Shown piece after piece: positions 37,467 through 48,244 of a stretch of 64,000 nucleotides of DNA. Position numbers and translations under genes: made by a program. The notes below the pieces were generated by a model, which worked only from the letters and a program-made list of their open reading frames with translations, was not told where the DNA came from and made no database searches. The stretch covers positions 711,164-775,163 of the forward strand of contig NZ_KZ679040.1 in the NCBI RefSeq assembly GCF_003024195.1. Reading direction: 5' to 3'. This stretch comes from Streptomyces dioscori. GTDB lineage: Bacteria > Actinomycetota > Actinomycetes > Streptomycetales > Streptomycetaceae. Every line of letters starts with the position of its first letter. The first letter of the stretch is position 1.

Positions 37467-38822
37467 TCACAGGTGGTCGGCGTACTCGTCCAGCTCCCAG
37501 TCGGTGACGTGCCGGTGGTAGCGGCCGACCTCGTCGCGTTTGTAGGTGAGGTACGCGGAGACGAACTCCTTGCCGAGCAGCTGGGTGAGGTCGGTGTCCG
37601 CCTCCAGCGCGTCGAGCGCGGCGGGCAGGCTCGCGGGCAGCAGGGGCGCCGAGGCGGTGTCGTAGCCGTACCCCTTGAGCGGGGCGGCGGGCTCGCGGCC
37701 GTCCCGCACCCCGAGCAGGACGGCCGCGCTCGCGGCGGCGACCAGCAGATACGGGTTGGCGGCGGCGTCCCCGAGCCGCAGTTCGAGCCGCGCTCCGGCC
37801 CCACGCTCGGGCGGTACGCGGACCATGGCACTGCGGTTGTCGAGGCCCCAGTCGATCAGCCACGGGGCGAGCGTGTCGGGGCCGAACCGCTTGTACGAGT
37901 TGACCGTGGGGTTCAGCAGCGCGGCGAGCGCCGGGGCGTGCGCGAGCAGCCCTGCCACGGCGTGCAGGGCGGTGGCCGAGAGACCGTACGGGCCCGCCGG
38001 GTCGTCGAAGACGTTTCCGCCCTCGCCGTCCACGCACGACAGATGGACATGGAAGCCGGAGCCGCCCGCGTCGTTGAAGGGTTTCGCCATGAAGGTGGCG
38101 GTCCGGCCCTCCGCGCGGGCCAGTTCCTTGACGGCCGACTTGAGGCGGAAGGCCCGGTCGGCGGCGTCCAGGGCCCGCGAGTGACCGAGGTTGATCTCGA
38201 ACTGTGAGCCGTCGAACTCGTGGTTGCCGGCCGTCACGCCGATGCCCAGGTCGCGCAGTGAACGCAAGGTGCGTAACAGGTGGTTGTCCGGGTCGGCGCG
38301 CAGACCCGCCGTGTACACGGTGCCGGCGGCCGTGCTGTAGCGGCGCCTGCCGCCGGGCGCGGCCGGGTCCGACTCGCAGAGGAAGTACTCCAGTTCGGGA
38401 CCGGCCACCGGGTTCAGCCCGTGCTCCGCGCACCGGGCGAGCACGGTGCGCAGCAGGTCGCGGGGGGACTCGGGGGTGGGCGCGCCGGTGCGGGCGTCGG
38501 TGACGTCGCCCAGGCAGGAGGCGACTCCCGGCTCCCACGGCAGCGGGGCCAGCGTGCTGAGGTCGGGCCGGACCAGCATGTCGGGCAGCCCGGCCTCCAG
38601 ACCGCCCGTCACCGGCACCACTTCGCCGCGCGGGGTGGTGTGGTAGACGGCCCGGCAGAAGGCGAGCCCGTGTGCGCAGGCCGTGGGCAGATGGTCGAGC
38701 AGCACGTCACGGGCCCGGTCCGTGCCGAGCAGGTCGGGGTAGACCACCCGGACCACATCGATACCGGCCTCGGCGAGCCGTTCGGTGTGTTCCCTGGTCA
38801 GGGAAGGGTCGTGTGCGCTCAC
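37467..38822 (-). CDS. Glutamine synthetase-like gamma-glutamyl-amine ligase (GlnA/PuuA type)
   Basis: This 451-aa protein has the GS fold and length of type I-like ligases. Metal and substrate motifs are visible: GPELEYFL (Glu143, Glu145), GNHEFDGSQFEINLG, GGSGFHVHLS (His258), NSYKRF and RLELRLGDAAANPYL. Members of this branch join glutamate to polyamines, ethanolamine, isopropylamine or aniline instead of ammonia. With two PuuD-like hydrolases in the locus, amine ligation is much more likely than glutamine synthesis. Start is GTG 38822 with GAGGAGG upstream. It is the first gene of the minus-strand operon; a candidate operator lies 69 nt upstream. Confidence 0.88.
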   Translation of the reverse strand: MSAHDPSLTREHTERLAEAGIDVVRVVYPDLLGTDRARDVLLDHLPTACAHGLAFCRAVYHTTPRGEVVPVTGGLEAGLPDMLVRPDLSTLAPLPWEPGVASCLGDVTDARTGAPTPESPRDLLRTVLARCAEHGLNPVAGPELEYFLCESDPAAPGGRRRYSTAAGTVYTAGLRADPDNHLLRTLRSLRDLGIGVTAGNHEFDGSQFEINLGHSRALDAADRAFRLKSAVKELARAEGRTATFMAKPFNDAGGSGFHVHLSCVDGEGGNVFDDPAGPYGLSATALHAVAGLLAHAPALAALLNPTVNSYKRFGPDTLAPWLIDWGLDNRSAMVRVPPERGAGARLELRLGDAAANPYLLVAAASAAVLLGVRDGREPAAPLKGYGYDTASAPLLPASLPAALDALEADTDLTQLLGKEFVSAYLTYKRDEVGRYHRHVTDWELDEYADHL

Positions 38823-38890
38823 CGCTGCCTCCTCGGGCAGATGGGAACGGGGCCGTCAGGTGGCCCGGGCGTTGCTGCCGCCCACCGTTT

Positions 38891-38904
38891 GTTTGATGTC
38901 AAAC
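38891..38904. promoter_or_regulatory. Candidate MarR operator upstream of the GS-like gene
   Basis: GTTTGATGTCAAAC has the same GTTTG-N4-CAAAC form as the sites at 27221 and 39007. It is embedded in a larger palindrome, ACCGTTTG (38884-38891) with CAAACGGT (38900-38907). On the minus strand it is in position to control the GS-P450-MarR operon. Confidence 0.6.
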
Positions 38905-38977
38905 GGTACGACGACCGTAAGGACGCCTGTCGTCCTCCCGCAAGGGTGCGGCCCGACTCGGTGTCCGGCGGGAGGGA

Positions 38978-39020
38978 TTGACCGACCCGGAGGGCACGCT
39001 TATGTTGTTTGGTGCCAAAC
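38978..39020 (+). promoter_or_regulatory. Promoter and operator of the permease operon
   Basis: -35 TTGACC (38978-38983), 17-bp spacer, -10 TATGTT (39001-39006), then GTTTGGTGCCAAAC (39007-39020) directly after the -10. The geometry is identical to that at 27192-27234. A start of transcription here leaves a ~90-nt leader before the small ORF at 39108. Confidence 0.72.
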
Positions 39021-39107
39021 GAGTTGTCGGCGCGCATCCGCGCACCCCCTCGCCCTTTCCTCCGCCCTTCCTCGCTCTGAGGCCCCGCACCTCGGGAGGA
39101 CCGTCCC

Positions 39108-39209
39108 ATGAAGGCCGTTGCCGACAGGATCAGGTGCGACCGCGACCGCGACCGCGGCCGGAACCCCGACCACGATCGCGAACACGCTCACGGACCGCAC
39201 GTGTCGTGA
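39108..39209 (+). CDS. Short upstream ORF (33 aa), possible leader peptide
   Basis: ATG 39108 is preceded by GGGAGGA at good spacing and the frame ends at TGA 39207-39209, overlapping the permease GTG (GTGA). The peptide is rich in Arg, Asp and His (CDRDRDRGRNP, HDREHAHGPH). The strong ribosome-binding site and stop/start overlap suggest it is translated and couples translation to the permease. No family is known to me. Confidence 0.55.
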   Translation: MKAVADRIRCDRDRDRGRNPDHDREHAHGPHVS

Positions 39210-40714
39210 CCGACGGGGATCCCGGCCGACGCCAGGCCGGCAGCACCACAGTGACCGCCGCGGACCGCCGGCTCAAGCGCGACGCCCTCGGAGTCCTCGG
39301 CATCCTCTTCCTCGTCCTGTCGGCGCAGGCGCCGCTGACCGGCATCGCCGGAGCCGTCCCCCTGTCCGTCGCGCTCGGCAACGGATCCGGCGTCCCCGCC
39401 GCGTACGTCGCCGCGGGCGCCGTGGTCCTGCTGTTCTCGGTGGGGTTCGTCGCGATGAGCCGGCACGTCGTCGACCCCGGCGCGTTCTCCATGTACATCG
39501 GCAAGGGCCTCGGCCGGACCACCGGTACCGGTGCCGCCGCCGTCGCGCTCTTCGCGTACTGCACCATCCAGGCCGCGATGTACGGCCTCTACGGAGCGAC
39601 GGTCGCCCAACTCCTGGACGTGCACGCGGGAATCGACGCGCCGTGGTGGGTGTGGGCGCTGCTCACCATGGCGCTGGTGCAGCTCCTCGGGATGGCGGGC
39701 ATCGACACGGGAGCGCGGGTACTGGCCGTCTTCGTGGTCGCCGAGACGAGCATCCTGCTGGTGTTCGCCCTGGTCACGCTGGTGCGCGGGGGAGGGCCCG
39801 AAGGACTCGGCCTCGCGGCGGCCTTCTCGCCGAAGACCGCGCTCGACGGCGCTCCGGGAGTGGCCCTGATGTTCGCCGTTGCATCCATGTTCGGCTTCGA
39901 GGCCACCGCCGTCTACGGGGAGGAGGCCCGCGCGCCGGAGCGGACCGTGCCCCGTGCCACCTATCTCTCCATCACGCTGATCACCGCGTTCTTCGCCCTC
40001 ACCTCCTGGATGGTGATCTCCGCCCACGGCGCCTCGCGCGCCACAGCCGAGGCCGGCCGGGCCCTTGAGGACGGGGATTCCTCGGCGTTCGTCTTCCGGC
40101 CGGTCACCGACCGGCTCGGCGACTGGACCGGTGACCTGCTGCCCGTCCTGCTCGCCACCTCCCTCTTCGCGGGGATCCTGGCCTTCCACAACTCGGCCGA
40201 CCGCTACCTGTTCTCGCTGGCCCGCGAGCGCCGTCTGCCGCACGCCCTGTGTGCCCTGAACCGGCGCGGCGCGCCCTGGGCGGCCGGCCTCGTCCAGACG
40301 GCGATCGCGGTGCTGCTGGTCGTGCCCTTCGCGCTGACCGGCCGCGATCCCGTCGTGACGCTGTTCTCCTGGTTCAGTGGTGTCGCCGTCCTGGCGATCA
40401 TGCTCCTGTACTTCCTGACGTCCGTGTCCGTGGTCGTCTTCTTCCGCCGGACCCGCCTGGACCGGCGGCCCTGGAACACCGCCGTCGCGCCCGCACTGGG
40501 CGCCCTGGGCATCGCCGGGGCCATCTGGCTCGTACTCACCAACCTGACGACCCTCATCGGCGGCGACCGGGCCACCGCCACCTGGCTGGCGCTGACGGTC
40601 CCGGCGGTCTGGCTGCTGGGCGCCGCCGCGTACCGGGTGCGACCGGCAGGACCGCCCTCCCCGCCGCCCCCGCCCTCCCCGACCCCGGAGACCTCCGACA
40701 TGGATCCGCCGTGA
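39206..40714 (+). CDS. APC-superfamily amino acid/amine permease
   Basis: This 502-aa membrane protein has about 12 helices. The first carries LFLVLSAQAPLTGIAGAVPL (the broken TM1 of APC transporters), and TM6 has ATAVYGEEAR, the conserved GFE/YGEE region. The C-terminus is a Pro-rich tail (PPSPPPPPSPTPE). It probably imports the amine or amino acid that the GS-like ligase uses. Start GTG 39206 overlaps the stop of the 33-aa leader ORF; upstream in-frame codons lie in the promoter and are not translated. It is divergent from the GS-like gene. Confidence 0.87.
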   Translation: MTDGDPGRRQAGSTTVTAADRRLKRDALGVLGILFLVLSAQAPLTGIAGAVPLSVALGNGSGVPAAYVAAGAVVLLFSVGFVAMSRHVVDPGAFSMYIGKGLGRTTGTGAAAVALFAYCTIQAAMYGLYGATVAQLLDVHAGIDAPWWVWALLTMALVQLLGMAGIDTGARVLAVFVVAETSILLVFALVTLVRGGGPEGLGLAAAFSPKTALDGAPGVALMFAVASMFGFEATAVYGEEARAPERTVPRATYLSITLITAFFALTSWMVISAHGASRATAEAGRALEDGDSSAFVFRPVTDRLGDWTGDLLPVLLATSLFAGILAFHNSADRYLFSLARERRLPHALCALNRRGAPWAAGLVQTAIAVLLVVPFALTGRDPVVTLFSWFSGVAVLAIMLLYFLTSVSVVVFFRRTRLDRRPWNTAVAPALGALGIAGAIWLVLTNLTTLIGGDRATATWLALTVPAVWLLGAAAYRVRPAGPPSPPPPPSPTPETSDMDPP

Positions 40715-40759
40715 CCTGGAGCGCCGTACGCCGAACCGCCTCCCCCCAGAGGAATGCCC

Positions 40760-41497
40760 GTGACCCGTCCCCGTCCCGCACGCCCCCTCATCGCCATTCC
40801 CGCCCGTTTCTCCGTCTCGACCTCGGCCCTGCGGTACTCCGCCGAGATCGTCGCCCGCGCCCTGGTCGAAGCCGTCTGGCGGGCGGGCGGCGAGCCCGTC
40901 ACCCTGCACCCCCACGCACCGGACGGCAGCTGCGACCCCGCGCTCGTCGCCGAGCGTCTGACCCGCTTCGACGGCGTTCTCCTGCCGGGCGGCGACGAAC
41001 TGCCGCCCGGCCGTTACGGGAACACGCCGACGCACGGCAGCACGCACGACGCCGACGCCGAACAGGACGGCTTCGATCTGGCGGTGGCCCACCACGTCCT
41101 GCGGACCGAGCTGCCGCTGCTGGCGATCTGCCGGGGGCTCCAGGCGGTCAACGTGGCGCTCGGCGGCACGCTGCAGGTGCAGTTGGCGGGCTGGCGGCGC
41201 CGGCACCACAACCTCGTGCATCAAGTGGCCGTCCAGCCCGCCACCCTGCTCGAACTGAGCATGGGTGCCCAGGTGGTGACGGCGTCCTGCTTCCACCGCA
41301 CCCGCGTCGACCGGGTGGGCGCGGGCCTCAAGGTCACCGCGCGGGCCGACGACGGCACCCGCGAGGCACTGGAACTACCGCACCGGCGCGCCTGGTTCGC
41401 CGGTGTGCAGTGGCACCCCGAGCACACCGCCCGGCACGACCCGGCGCAACAGGCCCTGTTCGAGGCGTTCATCCGGGCCACGGGGGCAGGCCGGTGA
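40760..41497 (+). CDS. Gamma-glutamyl-gamma-aminobutyrate hydrolase-family protein (second copy)
   Basis: This 245-aa peptidase C26-type hydrolase is close to the copy at 34664 (shared PLIAIPARFS, ALVEAVWRAGGEP, AEQDGFDL or DEQDGFDL). The nucleophile is in LAICRGLQAVN and the His-Glu pair in VQWHPEHT. It lacks the acidic insertion of the first copy. GTG 40760 has AGAGGA at better spacing than ATG 40754. It lies between permease and isochorismatase-like genes. Confidence 0.87.
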   Translation: MTRPRPARPLIAIPARFSVSTSALRYSAEIVARALVEAVWRAGGEPVTLHPHAPDGSCDPALVAERLTRFDGVLLPGGDELPPGRYGNTPTHGSTHDADAEQDGFDLAVAHHVLRTELPLLAICRGLQAVNVALGGTLQVQLAGWRRRHHNLVHQVAVQPATLLELSMGAQVVTASCFHRTRVDRVGAGLKVTARADDGTREALELPHRRAWFAGVQWHPEHTARHDPAQQALFEAFIRATGAGR

Positions 41498-41588
41498 GGC
41501 CCGCACGCGGCGGTCGGCACCCCGCACGCCCCCCGTCGTCCACCCGCAGTTCCGTCACCCGCAGCCCCGCTGGAGGGAAGAACCCGTC

Positions 41589-42209
41589 ATGAAACGTGCC
41601 CTCGTCGTCATCGACGTCCAGAACGAGTACGTCACGGGCGGTCTGCCGATCGGCTACCCGGACCCGTCCCTGAGCCTGGCGAACATCGCCGCGGCCGTCG
41701 ACACCGCCACCCAGGAGGGTGTCCCCGTCGTGCTCGTCCAGCACGCCGCACCCGCCGGTGCGCCCCTCTTCGCGCGGGGCACGCACGGCTTCGCCCTGCA
41801 CGACGTGGTGGCCTCCCGACCCCACGACCATCTCGTGGAGAAGACACTGCCGTCGTCCTTCATCGGCACCGACCTCGATGACTGGCTGCGCCGGGCGGGC
41901 GTCGACACGCTCACCCTCGTCGGCTACATGACGCAGACCTGCGACGAGTCGACCGCCCGGCACGCCGTCCAGCTCGGTTACCAGGTCGAGCTGCTCGCCG
42001 ACGCGACCGGTGCGCTGGCCCTGACCAACAGGGCGGGCAGTCTCTCCGCCGCCGAGATCCACCACGCGGTGCTGGTGGTCCTGCAGTCGTTCTTCGCCTA
42101 CACGGCGAGCACCGCCGAATGGATCGGCGCCGTCCGCACCAAGGCACCGCTCGGCCGTCCGGACTTCGCGGCGGCGACCGACGCGGGCTACACGGAGAAC
42201 GGCGGCTGA
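41589..42209 (+). CDS. Isochorismatase-family cysteine hydrolase
   Basis: This 206-aa hydrolase has the triad of this family: Asp9 in VVIDVQNEY, Lys85 in EKTLPSSF and nucleophile Cys118 in GYMTQTCDESTARHA. Relatives include nicotinamidase, N-carbamoyl-amidase, ureidoacrylate hydrolase and isochorismatase. In this locus an amide or carbamoyl bond of a pathway intermediate is the likely target. ATG 41589 follows GGAGGGAAG at ~12 nt. It is the last gene of the permease operon. Confidence 0.88.
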   Translation: MKRALVVIDVQNEYVTGGLPIGYPDPSLSLANIAAAVDTATQEGVPVVLVQHAAPAGAPLFARGTHGFALHDVVASRPHDHLVEKTLPSSFIGTDLDDWLRRAGVDTLTLVGYMTQTCDESTARHAVQLGYQVELLADATGALALTNRAGSLSAAEIHHAVLVVLQSFFAYTASTAEWIGAVRTKAPLGRPDFAAATDAGYTENGG

Positions 42210-42727: not shown

Positions 42728-44203
42728 GTGACAGATTTACCTCAGAGCGGACCATTGATCGAAGCATTCGACGTACAACTCTTCCGTGAAAACACCGAAT
42801 CCGTGCTGGCCAAGCTGGAAAAGCATCTGGCCGACCTGTCGATCCGGGGCCTGGAACTCACCGACCCCGCGCAATTGACACGGATGGCCCGGGCGTTGAT
42901 GACCACCGAGCACGAGAAAACCGCCGCGTTCGACGAGGCGAAACTCTCGGCGATCGTCGACCTGTACATCAGGACCGGTATCCAGGTCCATTCGCCCGGC
43001 TACATGGGCCGGCAGTTCTCGGGCGTGGTCCCGCTCTCCGGAGTCATCGACTTCGTCAGCTCCGTCGTCAACCAGCCCTCGTCCTTCTACGAGGCGGGCC
43101 AGCTGCCCAACGTCGTCGAGCGGATCATGGCCGACGAGCTGAACAGGTTCATCGGCTATCGGCCCGGCACCTTCGACATGGTGACCACCTCCGGCGGGTC
43201 GCTGGCCAATCTGACCGCCCTGCTCACCGCCCGGAACAGGGCTTTTCCCGGAGTCTGGGCCCGCGGCGGCCCGGAACTCGCCGGCCCGGCCCGGCCCGCC
43301 GTCGCGGTCGGCGCCGACGTCCACTACAGCGTCGCCCGGGCCGCCGGCATCCTCGGGATCGGCGAGGACCGCATCGTCCGCCTGCCGCTCGACACCGCAC
43401 GACGCATCGACGTCTCCCGCGCCGGGCCCGCCCTCGACGCCGCCGAACGGCAGGGCCTGGACGTCTTCTGCCTGGTCGCGTCCGCGGGCACGACGTCGGT
43501 GGGCGCCTTCGACCCGCTCGACGAACTGGCCGCCCTCTCGCGCGAACGCGGTCTGTGGCTGCACGTGGACGGCGCCCACGGCGCGAGCCTGCTGGTCTCC
43601 GACGAACTGCGCCACAAGCTGCGCGGCATCGACCAGGCCGACTCGCTGGCCTGGGACGCGCACAAGATGATGTTCGTGCCGGCCCCGTGCACCCTGCTCT
43701 TCTACCGGAACAGGGAACACAGCAGGGAAGCCTTCCGGCAGACCGCCAGTTACGTGTTCGACGCGCAGCCGGGCGTCTATACGGCACTCGACAGCGGCGA
43801 CAAGAACTTCGAATGCACGAAACGCCCCATGATGATGACTCTCTGGGTGCTGTGGGCGATGTACGGCAGAGCGCTCTTCGCCGAGAAAATCGAGTACCTG
43901 TGCCGGTTGACACGGGACGCCCACGCAATCCTGGAAAAGCAGGACGACTTCGAGACACTGCACTTCCCCGAGGCCAACATCATGTGTTTCCGCTACCGTC
44001 CCGAATGGCTCGCGGACGACGAAGTGGCCCAATTCCAGGTGGACATCAGGAACCGCATCAAGCAGGACGGTCAGTTCTTCATCTCCAAGGTCGACGTGGA
44101 CGGAGTGGCCGCCCTCAGGGTGGTCATGATGAATCACCAGATCACCACCGAGCATTTCCAGATGCTCCTCGGAGAGATAAGGAAAGCGGGGCGCAAGAAG
44201 TGA
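42728..44203 (+). CDS. Pyridoxal-dependent decarboxylase (group II)
   Basis: This 491-aa fold-type I PLP enzyme is of the glutamate / aromatic-L-amino-acid / 2,4-diaminobutyrate decarboxylase group. It has phosphate-binding TSGGSLANLTALL (154-166), PLP-ring stacking/pairing VDGAHGAS (Asp281, His284), and Schiff-base Lys313 in LAWDAHKMMFVPAPC. GTG 42728 has GAGGGAGG upstream and is preferred to earlier in-frame starts. It begins a six-gene unit; its stop overlaps the next start (GTGA). It would make an amine from an amino acid, but the substrate is not decided by sequence. Confidence 0.88.
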   Translation: MTDLPQSGPLIEAFDVQLFRENTESVLAKLEKHLADLSIRGLELTDPAQLTRMARALMTTEHEKTAAFDEAKLSAIVDLYIRTGIQVHSPGYMGRQFSGVVPLSGVIDFVSSVVNQPSSFYEAGQLPNVVERIMADELNRFIGYRPGTFDMVTTSGGSLANLTALLTARNRAFPGVWARGGPELAGPARPAVAVGADVHYSVARAAGILGIGEDRIVRLPLDTARRIDVSRAGPALDAAERQGLDVFCLVASAGTTSVGAFDPLDELAALSRERGLWLHVDGAHGASLLVSDELRHKLRGIDQADSLAWDAHKMMFVPAPCTLLFYRNREHSREAFRQTASYVFDAQPGVYTALDSGDKNFECTKRPMMMTLWVLWAMYGRALFAEKIEYLCRLTRDAHAILEKQDDFETLHFPEANIMCFRYRPEWLADDEVAQFQVDIRNRIKQDGQFFISKVDVDGVAALRVVMMNHQITTEHFQMLLGEIRKAGRKK

Positions 44204-45756
44204 CGGACACACGGGTGGCCCAGGCGCCCCCCACCGATCTCCGCGGCCTGGTCGACTGGCTCATCCCGGACTGGGAACTGACCCCGCCGACCCCCGAGGC
44301 GGTGACCCTGCTGCCGTCGTTCGCGAGCAAGATGCGGGAATGCGAGCGGGTCTGCGGGCAGCCCTACAGCGAGATCTCCCACGAGATCCAGGACGCCCTG
44401 GTGCTGCGCAGGCTCCAGCAGATGTTCCACACCGTCCGGCTGAATCCGCTCTGGCGCGAACGCCTGGAGAACGCCGGGATCATCCGGCCCCCCGACAGCT
44501 ACGAGGCGTGGCAGCGCGTACCGCTGTCCGACAAGGAGACCCAGCGCGACCTCTTCATGGGCTCCCGCGAAGGCATGGTCGTCCCGCACGACCGGGGCGG
44601 CTTCGAGGTCGTCGCCAGCGGTGGAACCAGCAGCGGCAGCCCCCTGGAGACCGTGTACTCGCTGAGAGAACTGAGCGACACCTACGCCGTGGCCGGCCAC
44701 TTCCTCGGCACGTACCAGATCGGCGCCCACCTGGCCGGCACGGATCCCAAGTGGCTGCTCACCACCCTGGCCGACTACCAGATGTGGAGCAGCGGCACGA
44801 TGGTCGGCGGAGTGCTGCAGAGCGTGCCGGGCGTCAACTACATCGGCGCCGGACCCGTCACCGCACCCGTCCTGGAACACGTCTTCTCCTACCGGGGCCC
44901 CAAGGCGCTGATGGGCATCTCGGCGGGCATCGCCATCCTCGCCGAACTGGGCGCGGGCATGAGCCAGAAGGCCAAGGACAGCTTCCGCGTCGCGCTCTAC
45001 GGCAGCGGTGTGCTCCCGCAGCGCAACCGGGACGAACTCAAGGCGCTCTACCCGAACCTGGCGATACTCAGCTACTTCGCGGCCACCCAGGCGGAGACCA
45101 TCGGGCTGCAGCTGGCAGAGTCGAGCCCCGTCCTCACCGCGGTCCCGGGCCTGCACCTCATCGAGATCGTCGACGAGAACGGCCGCTGGGTCCCTGAGGG
45201 CCAGGAGGGCGAACTCGTCGTCACGCGGCTGCACGCCCACGAGGCCCCGCTGCTGCGGCTGAAGCTGGGCGACCGCATGATCCGCAGGCCCCGCCTCGAC
45301 GGCCCGGGGCCGGGACCGAGGGCCCAGCAGTTCGAGTTCGCCGGACGGACCGGAGACATCCTGCACCTGAACGACAGCCAGTACTCGGCGGTGCGTGCCT
45401 ACGACGCGGTGCGCGACGAGCTGCGGACGGCCGGTGTGGTGGACCTGGACCAGGTCGCGCACGAGATCCAGTTCGTCAACCGGCGCGAGGAACGGGTCAT
45501 CGGCCTGTACGCCGCCGTGGACGACGTGCTCACCCCGGCGTACCGCGTCGACTCCCTGCTCGGTCCTGCCGGACTCCAGCGGGTGCTCGTCAACGCGCTG
45601 CCGCGGTCCCTGTCCCTGTTCAACGACGGTGAGGCCAACCCCACCTCGGTCGCGAAGACGGGCTACCGCCTGGAGGTCCGGTTCGTGCCGCGGCACTCGC
45701 CGGAGATCGAGCGCACGTCGGTCGGCAAGGTGCCGCTGGTCCGCGACCAGACCTGA
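44200..45756 (+). CDS. Adenylate-forming enzyme, PaaK/CapK-like
   Basis: This 518-aa protein resembles phenylacetate-CoA ligase and CapK-like adenylating enzymes. The AMP-binding loop is ASGGTSSGSPL (139-149), the mid motif EGQEGELVVTRL (from 333), LLRLKLGDRM gives Arg353/Asp358, and AGRTGDIL (381-388) is the hinge-region motif. The C-terminal domain ends SVGKVPLVRD, where the usual catalytic Lys is expected. It should activate a carboxylate as acyl-AMP for transfer to CoA, an amine or another acceptor. GTG 44200 overlaps the decarboxylase stop, so the two enzymes may act together. Confidence 0.8.
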   Translation: MTDTRVAQAPPTDLRGLVDWLIPDWELTPPTPEAVTLLPSFASKMRECERVCGQPYSEISHEIQDALVLRRLQQMFHTVRLNPLWRERLENAGIIRPPDSYEAWQRVPLSDKETQRDLFMGSREGMVVPHDRGGFEVVASGGTSSGSPLETVYSLRELSDTYAVAGHFLGTYQIGAHLAGTDPKWLLTTLADYQMWSSGTMVGGVLQSVPGVNYIGAGPVTAPVLEHVFSYRGPKALMGISAGIAILAELGAGMSQKAKDSFRVALYGSGVLPQRNRDELKALYPNLAILSYFAATQAETIGLQLAESSPVLTAVPGLHLIEIVDENGRWVPEGQEGELVVTRLHAHEAPLLRLKLGDRMIRRPRLDGPGPGPRAQQFEFAGRTGDILHLNDSQYSAVRAYDAVRDELRTAGVVDLDQVAHEIQFVNRREERVIGLYAAVDDVLTPAYRVDSLLGPAGLQRVLVNALPRSLSLFNDGEANPTSVAKTGYRLEVRFVPRHSPEIERTSVGKVPLVRDQT

Positions 45757-45850
45757 ACCACTGCGCCGCAACGATCCGCAAGGGCACAGAGCGATCACCC
45801 TCACCCCGCGCGTAACCCCCGATCCCCCGATCACAACGCAGGAGGAACGA

Positions 45851-46285
45851 GTGGCATACAAACCGCAGATCAACATCATCGCCGTGGTCGACGTCATCGG
45901 CGCCCTCTCCGGAGGCACGCTGCACAACGGCAACCTCTGCCTGGTCGACAACGCCGGCGAGGAGAGCACCGGACAGGGCACGGCCCATCTGCGTACCGCG
46001 GTCCGGCCGGGCCAGGTCGTCCAGTGGTCCGCCCTCGCCGTCGACCTCCAGACACCCGTCGAGATCCGGAGCATCACGTTCCTCGGCGAGGACGGCGTGG
46101 CGACACCCGCGACCCGCACCTCGGCCGAAGGCGACGGCGACAAGCTCGACCTGGCGCACTGGGCCGGCGTGGTCCCCCCGTCCCTGCCGTCCGGGACCCC
46201 CTTCAAGTACCGCCTCGAACTCCAGATGTACGAGGGCCGGTACAGCGTGCTGCACGTCGACTCGCCGGCGTTGATCGGCGTATGA
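45851..46285 (+). CDS. AidA/PixA-like inclusion body family protein 1
   Basis: This 144-aa protein starts at GTG 45851 after AGGAGG. It has the pattern of the AidA/PixA family: a first strand INIIAVVDVIGAL, a GNLCLVDN strand, the GQGTAHLRT turn, GQVVQWSALAVD, and a late WAGVVP...YRLELQ strand pair. There is no signal peptide or membrane helix. PixA of Xenorhabdus forms cytoplasmic inclusion bodies; the biochemical role of the family is unclear. It is the first of four tandem paralogues and follows the enzyme gene by 94 nt. Confidence 0.7.
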   Translation: MAYKPQINIIAVVDVIGALSGGTLHNGNLCLVDNAGEESTGQGTAHLRTAVRPGQVVQWSALAVDLQTPVEIRSITFLGEDGVATPATRTSAEGDGDKLDLAHWAGVVPPSLPSGTPFKYRLELQMYEGRYSVLHVDSPALIGV

Positions 46286-46343
46286 GCCGAGGCGCACAGG
46301 GCCCGGACGACCAGGAGACATCCCACAACGACGAGGTGGAAGC

Positions 46344-47246
46344 ATGGCTCAACAGCTGGCGATCATCGTGCTCGTGGACATCGGCAACGCTCTGGAGGCC
46401 AACAGCCTGCGGGACAACGTCTATCTGTTCGACAACATGAAGCTGCACGGATCCGACGGGCAGGGCACCGGCGATCTGGTGACCGCCATTCACGGCGCCT
46501 ACTGGCGCGACGGCTCACAGGCCACGGAACAGGTGCTCAACTGGCTGCCGTACAGCCTGGGTTCCCTGCCGCCGACCGTGCCGCGCGGTTACGAGAGCGA
46601 GCGGGCGCTGCAGAGCGACGCCCGGGCGCTGGAGGAACTGGACGCCCTCACGGCCAAACCCGACGCCACCGATCCCGCGGCCGATCTGAACGAGATCCGC
46701 AAGGCGGTCGGTACACGGGTGAAGACCACCCGGCGCACCAAGGGCCGGCTGTCGGGACAGAAGGTCATCGACCTGACCGGTGAGATCGTCACCGACACCT
46801 CCGCGGGCACCTACAGCTACCCCGCCCCCGTGATCACGGACATCTACGGCCAGGCCGTCGACGAGAAGATCATGTATCCGGCGGAGTACGGCTCTCCCGA
46901 CCTGGTCACCGACGGCTGGTACTGGTCCGCGACGGTCGACTCCTCCCGGCCCGGCACGTACTCCTACTCGATGCGCATCCAGCTCCACCGGCTGGTGCAG
47001 CGGGGCAGCGAGGCGCTCTGGGAGCCGGTGAACCTGACCTGCGAGTCGGCGCTGCGGGTGACGTCCGAGCCCAAGGTCAACGGCTTCACCGGCTCGGGGA
47101 TGGGCCTGCTGCCCCTCGACCCGTACCCGTCGTCCGCCCAGGGGGCGGAGTACTTCCAGCCCGGTCCGCAGCAGCCCGGTCCGCAGCAGCCCGGTTCGCA
47201 GCAGTCCGGTGTGCAGCAGTCCGGCCTCGTAGAGGAGGAGCGGTAG
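46344..47246 (+). CDS. AidA/PixA-like inclusion body family protein 2, enlarged with QQPG tail
   Basis: This 300-aa paralogue has the same N-terminal pattern (LAIIVLVDIGNAL, NVYLFDN, GQGTGDLVT) and the same ending strands (WYWSATVDSS, PGTYSYSMRIQL). Between them it carries a ~70-residue charged helical insertion (ALQSDARALEELDALTAKPD ... RKAVGTRVKTTRRTKG). After the domain is a Gly/Pro/Gln tail with four 5-residue repeats (GPQQP-like). ATG follows GAGGTGGA. It ends exactly where the next gene starts. The tail could mediate multimerisation or surface contact; that is a guess. Confidence 0.68.
   Translation: MAQQLAIIVLVDIGNALEANSLRDNVYLFDNMKLHGSDGQGTGDLVTAIHGAYWRDGSQATEQVLNWLPYSLGSLPPTVPRGYESERALQSDARALEELDALTAKPDATDPAADLNEIRKAVGTRVKTTRRTKGRLSGQKVIDLTGEIVTDTSAGTYSYPAPVITDIYGQAVDEKIMYPAEYGSPDLVTDGWYWSATVDSSRPGTYSYSMRIQLHRLVQRGSEALWEPVNLTCESALRVTSEPKVNGFTGSGMGLLPLDPYPSSAQGAEYFQPGPQQPGPQQPGSQQSGVQQSGLVEEER
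47160..47219 (+). repeat. Four 15-bp tandem repeats encoding the QQPG-type tail
   Basis: Units CCCGGTCCGCAGCAG (47160-47174), an identical copy (47175-47189), CCCGGTTCGCAGCAG and TCCGGTGTGCAGCAG stay in frame and encode repeated P/S-G-x-Q-Q. Identity of the first two units suggests recent expansion. Confidence 0.92.
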
Positions 47247-47672
47247 ATGACCAGCGAGACGGACAACGGCGGCGCCAGGCGCCCGATCGCGATCACCGCC
47301 GTCGTGGACTGCGTGGGAGCCCTCGCCACCGGCACCGTGCACGGCAACCTGTACTTCTACGACACCAACAAGGCGGGCGGATCCCAGGGGTTCGGCACCG
47401 AGCAGTTACGCACCCGGGTCCGCAGCGGCGACCAGGTCCTGTGGTCCGTGCTCGCCCTGGAGTGCGAGGCGTACACGGCGATCGACGGCATCGACATCGA
47501 CCACGAGCTGTGCGAGCCGGAGCGCAGGGTCTACCCCGGCACGGATGTCGCGTACTGGATCGGGACCGTGAAGAAGGACATCCCGGGCGACACGTACTAC
47601 CAGGTCCGGTTCCGGCTCGGCTCGCGCGACGAGCCGATCGTCACCACGCTGTCCCCGAGTCTCGTCGGCTGA
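47247..47672 (+). CDS. AidA/PixA-like inclusion body family protein 3
   Basis: This 141-aa paralogue has IAITAVVDCVGALATGTVHG, NLYFYDTN, then GFGTEQLRT in place of GQGT, then GDQVLWSVLALE, and YWIGTVK...PGDTYYQVRFRL at the end. The ATG directly follows the stop of gene 2, with GAGGAGGAG overlapping the end of that gene. It has two Cys (in VDCVG and HELCEPE or LECEAY) not shared by its neighbours. Confidence 0.68.
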   Translation: MTSETDNGGARRPIAITAVVDCVGALATGTVHGNLYFYDTNKAGGSQGFGTEQLRTRVRSGDQVLWSVLALECEAYTAIDGIDIDHELCEPERRVYPGTDVAYWIGTVKKDIPGDTYYQVRFRLGSRDEPIVTTLSPSLVG

Positions 47673-47686
47673 TTCCAGGAGGAGCG

Positions 47687-48244
47687 ATGAGTACGAGCAC
47701 TGTCGGCGAAGCCGTCGAACAGAAGCAGAACCCGGGCCAGTTGAACTCGGTCCAGCTCAACATCGTCACCCTCATCGACATGGAGCGGGCGACCGAGACC
47801 GGTTCGCTCAGCGAGTCGATGTTCATGATGGACAACAGCATCGGCGGTGACGGGCAGGGCACGAACCACCTCCAGACGTTCTGCAAGCAGGGGCAGGTCC
47901 TGAACTGGATCGTGCGGCCCATCGACATGGACAAGCGGATCGACAACACCTGGCCGCCCATGCCGAAGATCAACAGCATCGTCTTTCTCGACACGGAGTC
48001 CGGGGACGAGGAGGACGTGGCGGAGCGCAAGATCTTCACCGAGCTGAAGATCTACGGGGCGCCTGACCGGATGCGGGACAAGTTCACGCCGGTGTACTAC
48101 TACTGGGCCGGCACGGTTCTGAGCACGGCCCGGCCGGGCTTGTACCGGTACCGGCTGGTCCTGGAGCTGGAACAACGGGGCACGCAGGAAAAGCTGTACC
48201 TCAACACAGAGGAACACCCGTCGATCCGGGTCCTGGCGGTCTGA
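47687..48244 (+). CDS. AidA/PixA-like inclusion body family protein 4
   Basis: This 185-aa paralogue has a polar 22-residue N-terminal extension, then LNIVTLIDMERATETGSL, SMFMMDNS, GQGTNHLQT, GQVLNWIVRPID, and a late YYYWAGTVLS...PGLYRYRLVLEL. ATG 47687 follows CCAGGAGGAG. It is the last gene of the unit, followed by dispersed repeat elements. Among the four it has the most complete family pattern. Confidence 0.7.
   Translation: MSTSTVGEAVEQKQNPGQLNSVQLNIVTLIDMERATETGSLSESMFMMDNSIGGDGQGTNHLQTFCKQGQVLNWIVRPIDMDKRIDNTWPPMPKINSIVFLDTESGDEEDVAERKIFTELKIYGAPDRMRDKFTPVYYYWAGTVLSTARPGLYRYRLVLELEQRGTQEKLYLNTEEHPSIRVLAV

What the first reader, a model, noticed from the sequence alone, without database searches (positions are those of the whole stretch)
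42728..48244. Four tandem AidA/PixA-like proteins coupled to a PLP decarboxylase and a PaaK-like adenylating enzyme
Four consecutive small cytosolic proteins (144, 300, 141, 185 aa) share one skeleton: a strand ending V-D, a D-N or D-T strand, G-Q-G-T-x-x-L-x-T, G-Q-V-x-x-W, and a late W-x-G-x-V ... P-G-x-Y-x-Y-R pattern. This resembles the AidA/PixA inclusion-body family, known mainly from proteobacteria (PixA in Xenorhabdus, AidA in Ralstonia). Here they follow two enzymes whose genes overlap (GTGA). A decarboxylase that makes an amine, an enzyme that activates a carboxylate, and four possible scaffold or storage proteins may form an undescribed actinobacterial system, for example an amide-forming pathway with protein inclusions. 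The pathway is inference; the paralogy is seen.
Basis: partly seen in the sequence, partly recalled or inferred. Interest (0 to 1): 0.86.

Follow-up and report, generated by a model that had tools for sequence, protein, structure and literature searches.

The report
Conserved six-gene operon with PixA-like proteins
A Streptomyces-type genome carries a tightly conserved set of two enzyme genes and four related small-protein genes, the same set in the same order as in other actinobacteria and on plasmids of root-nodule bacteria, which gives a poorly understood protein family an enzymatic context that can be tested.

Summary
A (PLP decarboxylase), B (PaaK-like adenylating enzyme) and C1-C4 (144, 300, 141, 185 aa) are intact, on one strand and closely spaced; A and B overlap at GTGA. 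C1-C4 are homologous: all match NCBIfam MakCD (E 8e-11 to 3e-17, below its cut-off), C3 and C4 match solved MakC/MakD by sequence, and the C4 model matches MakC, MakD and a PixA structure (Z 14.4, 14.0, 13.2). None matches the PF12306 profile itself. The set is neither strain-specific nor purely actinobacterial: 37 of 38 loci found through C4 carry all six genes in order (Streptomycetaceae, Thermomonosporaceae, Streptosporangiaceae), in differing surroundings, and so do the three rhizobial plasmids opened (Bradyrhizobium, Sinorhizobium). Each paralogue is its own orthologous group (weakest for C1). New here: a cysteine hydrolase adjoins the set in 13 of 45 loci, always within 0.71 kb. Best reading: an old, sporadically kept mini-pathway (decarboxylate, activate a carboxylate, form a conjugate) whose four small proteins bind or scaffold enzymes or product. 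Chemistry and inclusion formation are inference. New variant of a known kind; interest moderate to high.

The parts
41589..42209 (+). Cysteine hydrolase (isochorismatase superfamily, PF00857, 206 aa), optional seventh gene, 518 bp upstream of A
   Evidence: PF00857 E 9.6e-35; a homologue found by an iterated profile lies within 0.71 kb of the set in 13 of 45 loci, and none was found farther off in the 652 kb of flanks held
42728..44203 (+). Gene A: PLP-dependent (group II) decarboxylase, 491 aa
   Evidence: PF00282 E 3.4e-52; best solved chains GAD1/GAD2, GADL1, CSAD; H199, D281, K313, R464 invariant in 26 rows
44200..45756 (+). Gene B: PaaK-like adenylating (ANL) enzyme, 518 aa, start overlaps the stop of A (GTGA)
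   Evidence: PaaK-type NCBIfam matches below cut-off; PaaK 4r1l E 3e-10 by profile; S140, G141, G142, T143, G146, E299, D358, R383, K510 invariant in 26 rows
45851..46285 (+). Gene C1: MakCD/PixA-superfamily protein, 144 aa
   Evidence: NF049870 1.9e-12; profile match to C3, E 1.2e-15
46344..47246 (+). Gene C2: MakCD/PixA-superfamily protein with a long insert and a Q/P-rich tail, 300 aa
   Evidence: NF049870 8.3e-11; model of low confidence, insert predicted helical
47247..47672 (+). Gene C3: MakCD/PixA-superfamily protein, 141 aa, starts directly after the stop of C2
   Evidence: NF049870 3.1e-17; MakC 8rqy 1.2e-16 and MakD 6tct 1.1e-10 by profile
47687..48244 (+). Gene C4: MakCD/PixA-superfamily protein, 185 aa; highest mean column identity of the four (76%)
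   Evidence: NF049870 1.7e-12; mean identities; model Z 14.4 to MakC, 14.0 to MakD, 13.2 to PixA 4lzk

Best explanation
A conserved six-gene functional module. Shown: A and B belong to enzyme families and keep the residues expected for catalysis, and C1-C4 are four anciently separated paralogues of the MakC/MakD-PixA beta-sandwich superfamily that are kept together. Inferred: A decarboxylates an amino acid, probably of the acidic or diamino class, to an amine or omega-amino acid; B adenylates a carboxylate and passes it to a nucleophile, most simply the amine, giving a conjugate; C1-C4 are cytosolic, non-catalytic proteins that pair up and bind or scaffold the enzymes or hold the product; where present, the cysteine hydrolase trims or reverses the conjugate.
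For: Same six genes, order and strand in 37 of 38 loci found through C4, with gaps of -10 to 180 bp; the one larger value, 488 bp between C1 and C2, comes from a short C2 ORF call in L028. Reverse test through B: 7 of 392 genomes of the genus have B, own genome included, and all 7 have the C genes; all 7 plasmid records with B also hold C3 and C1-type matches. Rhizobial C1-C4 match the actinobacterial profiles in the same order, and each paralogue is one side of a branch in a 64-row tree (C1 91/66, C2 100/99, C3 100/99, C4 99/95). Catalytic residues of A and B are invariant in 26 rows. Flanks differ between loci except the cysteine hydrolase, 13 of 13 adjacent. Fold of C4. MakC and MakD are cytosolic and dimeric in crystals, and MakC forms large complexes on cross-linking (PMC11484084).
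Against: No substrate, product, expression or interaction data. MakD stayed mostly monomeric on cross-linking (PMC11484084), so dimers are not assured. Positions that align with GAD67 Asn212 and Phe214 (numbering and role recalled) are P117 and S119, so glutamate cannot be assumed. B is only distantly PaaK-like. No cysteine hydrolase was found in 32 of 45 loci, so it is not essential. Known MakCD/PixA proteins come from toxin, inclusion and quorum-sensing settings, not enzyme operons. By single-sequence BLAST window C1 is as close to rhizobial C4 as to rhizobial C1. L024 C1 and L028 C2 may be frameshifted.
Confidence: 0.5

Rival explanations
1. C1-C4 assemble into a cytosolic protein body (inclusion or enzyme compartment) that houses A and B.
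For: [quoted passage not shown] four retained paralogues would suit a hetero-assembly; MakC forms large complexes on cross-linking.
Against: MakC and MakD were seen spread in the cytosol and not as inclusions in what I read; purified Bnr1 was a dimer. I found nothing in the sequences that predicts polymerisation.
Confidence: 0.2
2. B transfers the activated acyl group onto C proteins (protein conjugation) instead of onto a free amine, and the cysteine hydrolase removes it.
For: B keeps the adenylation residues, and the search for conserved neighbours found no acyltransferase or carrier-protein family beside the set (ORFs under 120 aa were not included, so a small carrier could be missed). B was not seen without the C genes.
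Against: No acceptor residue was sought; C3 C-termini vary in length, so a common C-terminal acceptor is unlikely for C3. Co-occurrence alone does not show a substrate relation.
Confidence: 0.12
3. Accessory proteins of a pore-forming toxin, as MakC/MakD in Vibrio cholerae.
For: The nearest named family by sequence and fold is MakCD.
Against: No toxin-like family among the conserved neighbours; PF05791 (HBL type) finds nothing in the own genome at E up to 1, but that model need not catch all such toxins and its controls ring only at chance level. Enzyme partners are conserved instead.
Confidence: 0.04
4. DNA-mimic regulators, as proposed for Bnr1 of Burkholderia cenocepacia (PixA family).
For: The window's C proteins are acidic, pI 4.7-5.0.
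Against: Orthologues in 37 loci are not consistently acidic: median pI 4.60, 5.30, 6.60, 5.49 for C1-C4, up to 9.18; the link to two enzymes stays unexplained.
Confidence: 0.05

Closest known systems
MakC and MakD of Vibrio cholerae (NCBIfam NF049870; PDB 8rqy, 6tct)
   Same: Sequence similarity (C3 profile E 1.2e-16 and 1.1e-10), fold (C4 model Z 14.4 and 14.0), small cytosolic beta-sandwich paralogues side by side in an operon
   Different: 42-63 bits against a cut-off of 110; four paralogues, not two; partners are a decarboxylase and an adenylating enzyme, not toxin subunits
PixA/AidA family (PF12306; PDB 4lzk, 4pib) of Burkholderia, Xenorhabdus, Ralstonia
   Same: Fold (C4 model Z 13.2 and 10.5); several paralogues per genome, five in B. 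cenocepacia J2315; AidA/PixB-like proteins already noted in Actinobacteria (PMC9060813, passages)
   Different: No PF12306 profile match; 9-11% identity in the structural alignments; no enzyme partners named in the passages I read
GAD/CSAD/GADL1-type PLP decarboxylases (PF00282)
   Same: Whole-domain match and catalytic residues
   Different: Pocket positions aligned with GAD67 Asn212 and Phe214 differ; alignment around Gln190 is ambiguous (R95 or Q96); no equivalog cut-off met
Phenylacetate-CoA ligase PaaK and relatives (ANL superfamily)
   Same: Adenylation-core residues placed by eye; local matches to PaaK structures
   Different: Below the curated cut-offs; about 45 extra N-terminal residues; its own mostly invariant block at 185-219

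Membership tests
PixA/AidA, PF12306 | Pfam profile match above the gathering score (21 bits) | tested here: not met
   No PF12306 match for C1-C4 at E up to 10, nor for eight rhizobial C proteins at E up to 1
PixA/AidA, PF12306 | PixA fold | tested here: met
   C4 model against 4lzk Z 13.2, rmsd 4.8 over 143; 4pib Z 10.5. Met for C4 only: C1 and C3 were not modelled and the C2 model is too poor
PixA/AidA, PF12306 | Forms inclusion bodies | not testable with these tools
   Needs microscopy
MakCD, NF049870 | Score above the curated cut-off of 110 bits | tested here: not met
   47.3, 42, 62.8, 47.5 bits
MakCD, NF049870 | Significant sequence and fold similarity | tested here: met
   E 8.3e-11 to 3.1e-17 for all four; fold for C4 only, Z 14.4 and 14.0
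MakCD, NF049870 | Operon with tripartite pore-forming toxin genes | tested here: inconclusive
   None among conserved neighbours; PF05791 none in the own genome, but that model may miss them
Group II PLP decarboxylases, PF00282 | Pfam match and catalytic Lys | tested here: met
   177.9 bits against a cut-off of 27; K313 invariant in 26 rows
PaaK / AMP-binding ANL enzymes | Pfam AMP-binding above cut-off, or a PaaK equivalog | tested here: not met
   18.2 bits against 29.9; PaaK equivalogs far below cut-off
PaaK / AMP-binding ANL enzymes | Adenylation residues (motifs recalled: P-loop, A5 Glu, A7 Asp, A8 Arg, A10 Lys) | tested here: met
   S140, G141, G142, T143, G146, E299, D358, R383, K510 invariant in 26 rows; assigned to motifs by eye
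Isochorismatase-like cysteine hydrolases, PF00857 | Pfam match above the gathering score | tested here: met
   Window gene 120.7 and L043 gene 112.5 bits against 27; the other 11 were matched only by a profile built here

The most novel reading that the evidence does not exclude
The MakCD/PixA superfamily is a family of binding or assembly proteins for small acyl-amine conjugates. This operon is the self-contained form, in which a four-paralogue hetero-assembly receives the product of its own decarboxylase and adenylating enzyme, free or covalently attached; AidA, PixA and MakC/D would be derivatives that respond to related metabolites.
Probability: 0.15. Interest if true: 0.85.

Novelty: new variant of a known kind. 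Interest (0 to 1): 0.6.

Why it matters
PixA, AidA, Bnr1, MakC and MakD are linked to inclusions, quorum sensing and virulence, yet the MakC/MakD paper calls the functions of its two proteins unknown (PMC11484084, abstract) and the Bnr1 paper calls PixA proteins poorly understood (PMC9060813, passage). Here relatives are locked to two enzymes that keep their catalytic residues, so a biochemical role can be sought directly: find what A and B make, then ask whether C1-C4 bind, carry or house it. No description of this operon turned up in eight full-text searches, which cover open-licence PMC papers only and of which I saw mostly listings.

Tried and rejected
C2 structure: the model is too poor to interpret (mean pLDDT 56, pTM 0.44), so no fold search was run with it. 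Viral collection: scans with the B and C3 profiles found no relative. Defence-system reading: no PADLOC match at E up to 0.01 for seven proteins. Phylum-wide survey: B and MakCD each found in 1 of 396 sampled genomes, the own genome; MakCD in 1 of 41, again only the own genome. So the set is rare. A PF12306 search of the own genome found nothing, but its controls were silent too, so one search carries that point. The first cross-paralogue script stopped with an error after its main output; identities were redone. VIA matches below the MakCD/PixA entries (SO1698 at Z 9.4, which is tied with 4q52 at 10.3; phage collar proteins; chagasin-type inhibitors) were not pursued. Frequent transfer of the set between families was considered: in the A+B tree Streptomycetaceae stay together and the three families need 3 changes where 2 is the least (quick method, SH-aLRT only), so descent with much loss, plus some transfer (Actinomadura rupiterrae L036 groups with Streptosporangium), fits better. 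The tool warns that more than one change is no proof of transfer.

Rows dropped before counts: L039-L042 and L053 (pieces of the own genome) were left out, and L047-L052 also out. L056-L059 were not counted as new because their contig lengths equal those of L007, L013, L023 and L008; L055 may likewise be a strain of a species already listed. L006 was left out of the C1 alignment. Alignments A1-A6 used 21 or 22 of the 37 complete loci plus the window.
Full report
What is there. The window lies in a 10.2 Mb genome of the genus of the Streptomyces contigs met later. Six genes on the + strand run A (42728-44203), B (44200-45756), C1 (45851-46285), C2 (46344-47246), C3 (47247-47672), C4 (47687-48244). 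A and B overlap at GTGA; C3 starts right after the stop of C2. A cysteine hydrolase gene lies 518 bp upstream (41589-42209).

Are C1-C4 related, and to what? Pfam gives no family for any of them, PF12306 included, at E up to 10, apart from a chance-level DUF hit for C2 at E 0.16. NCBIfam MakCD matches all four, E 1.9e-12, 8.3e-11, 3.1e-17 and 1.7e-12, but at 42-63 bits against a cut-off of 110. Against solved structures the C3 profile finds MakC (8rqy, listed as 'Inclusion body protein') at 1.2e-16 and MakD (6tct) at 1.1e-10; the C4 profile finds them at 4.4e-6 and 6.1e-4. Profile-profile comparison, done for 4 of 6 pairs, gives E 3.7e-7 (C4-C3), 1.2e-15 (C3-C1), 2.6e-9 (C3-C2) and 3.3e-10 (C4-C2), the last two over 54-58 columns only. 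The AlphaFold model of C4 has mean pLDDT 76. Its best entries by VIA-align are MakC Z 14.4, MakD 14.0, PixA 4lzk 13.2, PixA 4pib 10.5 and the Chitinophaga protein 4q52 10.3; SO1698 follows at 9.4, which counts as tied with 4q52. The 13 Foldseek matches with E up to 0.001 are all chains of those first five entries. The MakC/MakD paper reports 4lzk, 4q52 and 4pib as its own DALI hits above Z 10 (PMC11484084, section 3.2). The C2 model is too poor to use; C1 and C3 were not modelled.

Is the neighbourhood conserved? One scan of the genome collection with C4 returned 38 loci (it finds close relatives only and may leave out the own genome). All six genes, in the same order and strand, are detected in 37 of 38. 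In the exception, L038 (Nonomuraea solani), the 5' part of A is joined in frame to C4, a deletion or an assembly error. Two of the 37 may hold a frameshift (L024 C1, L028 C2). Since that scan selects on C4, the reverse was tested. B occurs in 7 of 392 genomes of the genus, own genome included. In the plasmid collection B occurs in 7 records and C3 in the same 7. B was thus not seen without the C genes in these searches. The set is rare: 1 of 396 genomes sampled across the phylum and 0 of 40 relatives by MakCD.

Beyond actinobacteria. Six of the seven plasmid records are Bradyrhizobium elkanii (4), B. barranii (1) and Sinorhizobium alkalisoli (1); the seventh is an 11.9 Mb Nonomuraea gerenzanensis record, which has all six genes. 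I opened three of the six rhizobial records. Each has a decarboxylase, B, four small genes and then a cysteine hydrolase on one strand; B and the small genes are annotated as hypothetical. A and B are 48-53% and 50-52% identical to the window's. Each rhizobial small gene scores best with the profile of the actinobacterial gene at the same place: C4 164-169 bits, C3 110-117, C1 59-65, C2 188-193. The margin is wide for C2-C4. For C1 it is narrower, and by single-sequence BLAST window C1 matches rhizobial C4 about as well as rhizobial C1. In a 64-row tree (12 loci, window and three rhizobia) each of C1-C4 is one side of a branch with the rhizobial rows inside (support C1 91/66, C2 100/99, C3 100/99, C4 99/95); the program warns that the C2-C4 join involves long branches. 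The four paralogues therefore most likely separated before the two lineages of the operon did, and all four have been kept. The A+B tree follows the families with few exceptions, so long residence with frequent loss fits better than constant transfer. Window against L054 shows purifying selection on every gene, dN/dS 0.08-0.23.

Flanks and the seventh gene. In the window the neighbours are a P450, a glutamine-synthetase-like enzyme, an amino-acid permease, a C26 gamma-glutamyl-hydrolase-like protein and, downstream, genes shared with the close relative L054. Outside L054 these neighbours hardly recur: a MarR-like gene in one locus, P450 in two at 28-33% identity, the C26 gene in one, the others in none, against ten loci for the cysteine hydrolase. 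Predicted nearest neighbours in 17 loci differ by eye, apart from pairs of close relatives and one repeated type (first residues only). An iterated profile of the cysteine hydrolase found 13 genes in 45 loci with 652 kb of flanking DNA; all 13 lie within 0.71 kb of the set. They occur upstream or downstream and on either strand, in five arrangements (Streptomyces upstream +, Actinacidiphila downstream -, Nonomuraea downstream -, rhizobia downstream +, Streptosporangium upstream -). The own genome has seven PF00857 genes in all. A functional tie is therefore likely, although none was found in 32 of 45 loci, some of which have short flanks.

Enzymes. A matches PF00282 at 3.4e-52; its best solved relatives are glutamate, GADL1 and cysteine-sulfinate decarboxylases. 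Residues that I take to be the PLP Lys (K313), the Asp and His of the PLP site (D281, H199) and the carboxylate Arg (R464) are invariant in 26 rows. The positions that align with GAD67 Asn212 and Phe214 are P117 and S119, while the alignment at Gln190 differs between chains (numbering and roles recalled), so the substrate is open. B is a remote PaaK relative; the adenylation residues that I could place by eye are invariant in 26 rows, and so are 25 of 35 positions at 185-219.

How it most likely works. Shown: a conserved module of two enzymes with intact catalytic residues and four ancient MakCD/PixA-type paralogues. Inferred: A makes an amine or omega-amino acid, B activates a carboxylate and links it to a nucleophile, C1-C4 pair up and act as binding or scaffold proteins, and the cysteine hydrolase, where present, trims or undoes the product. 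MakC and MakD are cytosolic and dimeric in crystals; on cross-linking MakC is found in large complexes while MakD stays mostly monomeric (PMC11484084), which fits an assembly role for some members at least. A protein body, covalent loading of C proteins by B, a toxin accessory role and DNA mimicry were weighed as rivals.

Literature. Seen: PMC11484084 (abstract, Results 3.1-3.3, Discussion; 3.4 not seen); passages of PMC9060813 and PMC10143992; listings only for all others. That paper speaks of MakC/MakD as exclusive to V. cholerae, while the Bnr1 paper already mentions AidA/PixB-like proteins in Actinobacteria; neither, in what I saw, describes this operon. Searches for the gene combination returned nothing on it.

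Noticed in passing
window 37467-42209: Upstream of the set lie a glutamine-synthetase-like gene (-), an amino-acid permease, a C26 gamma-glutamyl-hydrolase-like gene and the cysteine hydrolase. This resembles polyamine/GABA utilisation genes; of the loci searched, the C26 gene recurs near the set only in L001 and L054.
   Followed up: partly
L038:9326-10555: In Nonomuraea solani the 5' part of the decarboxylase gene is joined in frame to C4, with B and C1-C3 not detected: a deletion or an assembly error.
   Followed up: partly
L004, L005, L010, L012, L016, about 0.1-1.3 kb downstream of C4: Two genes on the opposite strand, one response-regulator-like by eye and the other possibly a sensor kinase, follow the set in five related Streptomyces loci.
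   Followed up: no
L030 downstream and L037 upstream of the set: Similar predicted proteins (metallo-beta-lactamase-like by eye) sit next to the set on opposite sides in a Streptosporangium and an Actinomadura.
   Followed up: no
L043, L044, L045: The rhizobial copies sit on large plasmids with transposase genes near; by the tallies the four B. elkanii plasmids are those typed as conjugative, so the module may spread among nodule bacteria.
   Followed up: partly
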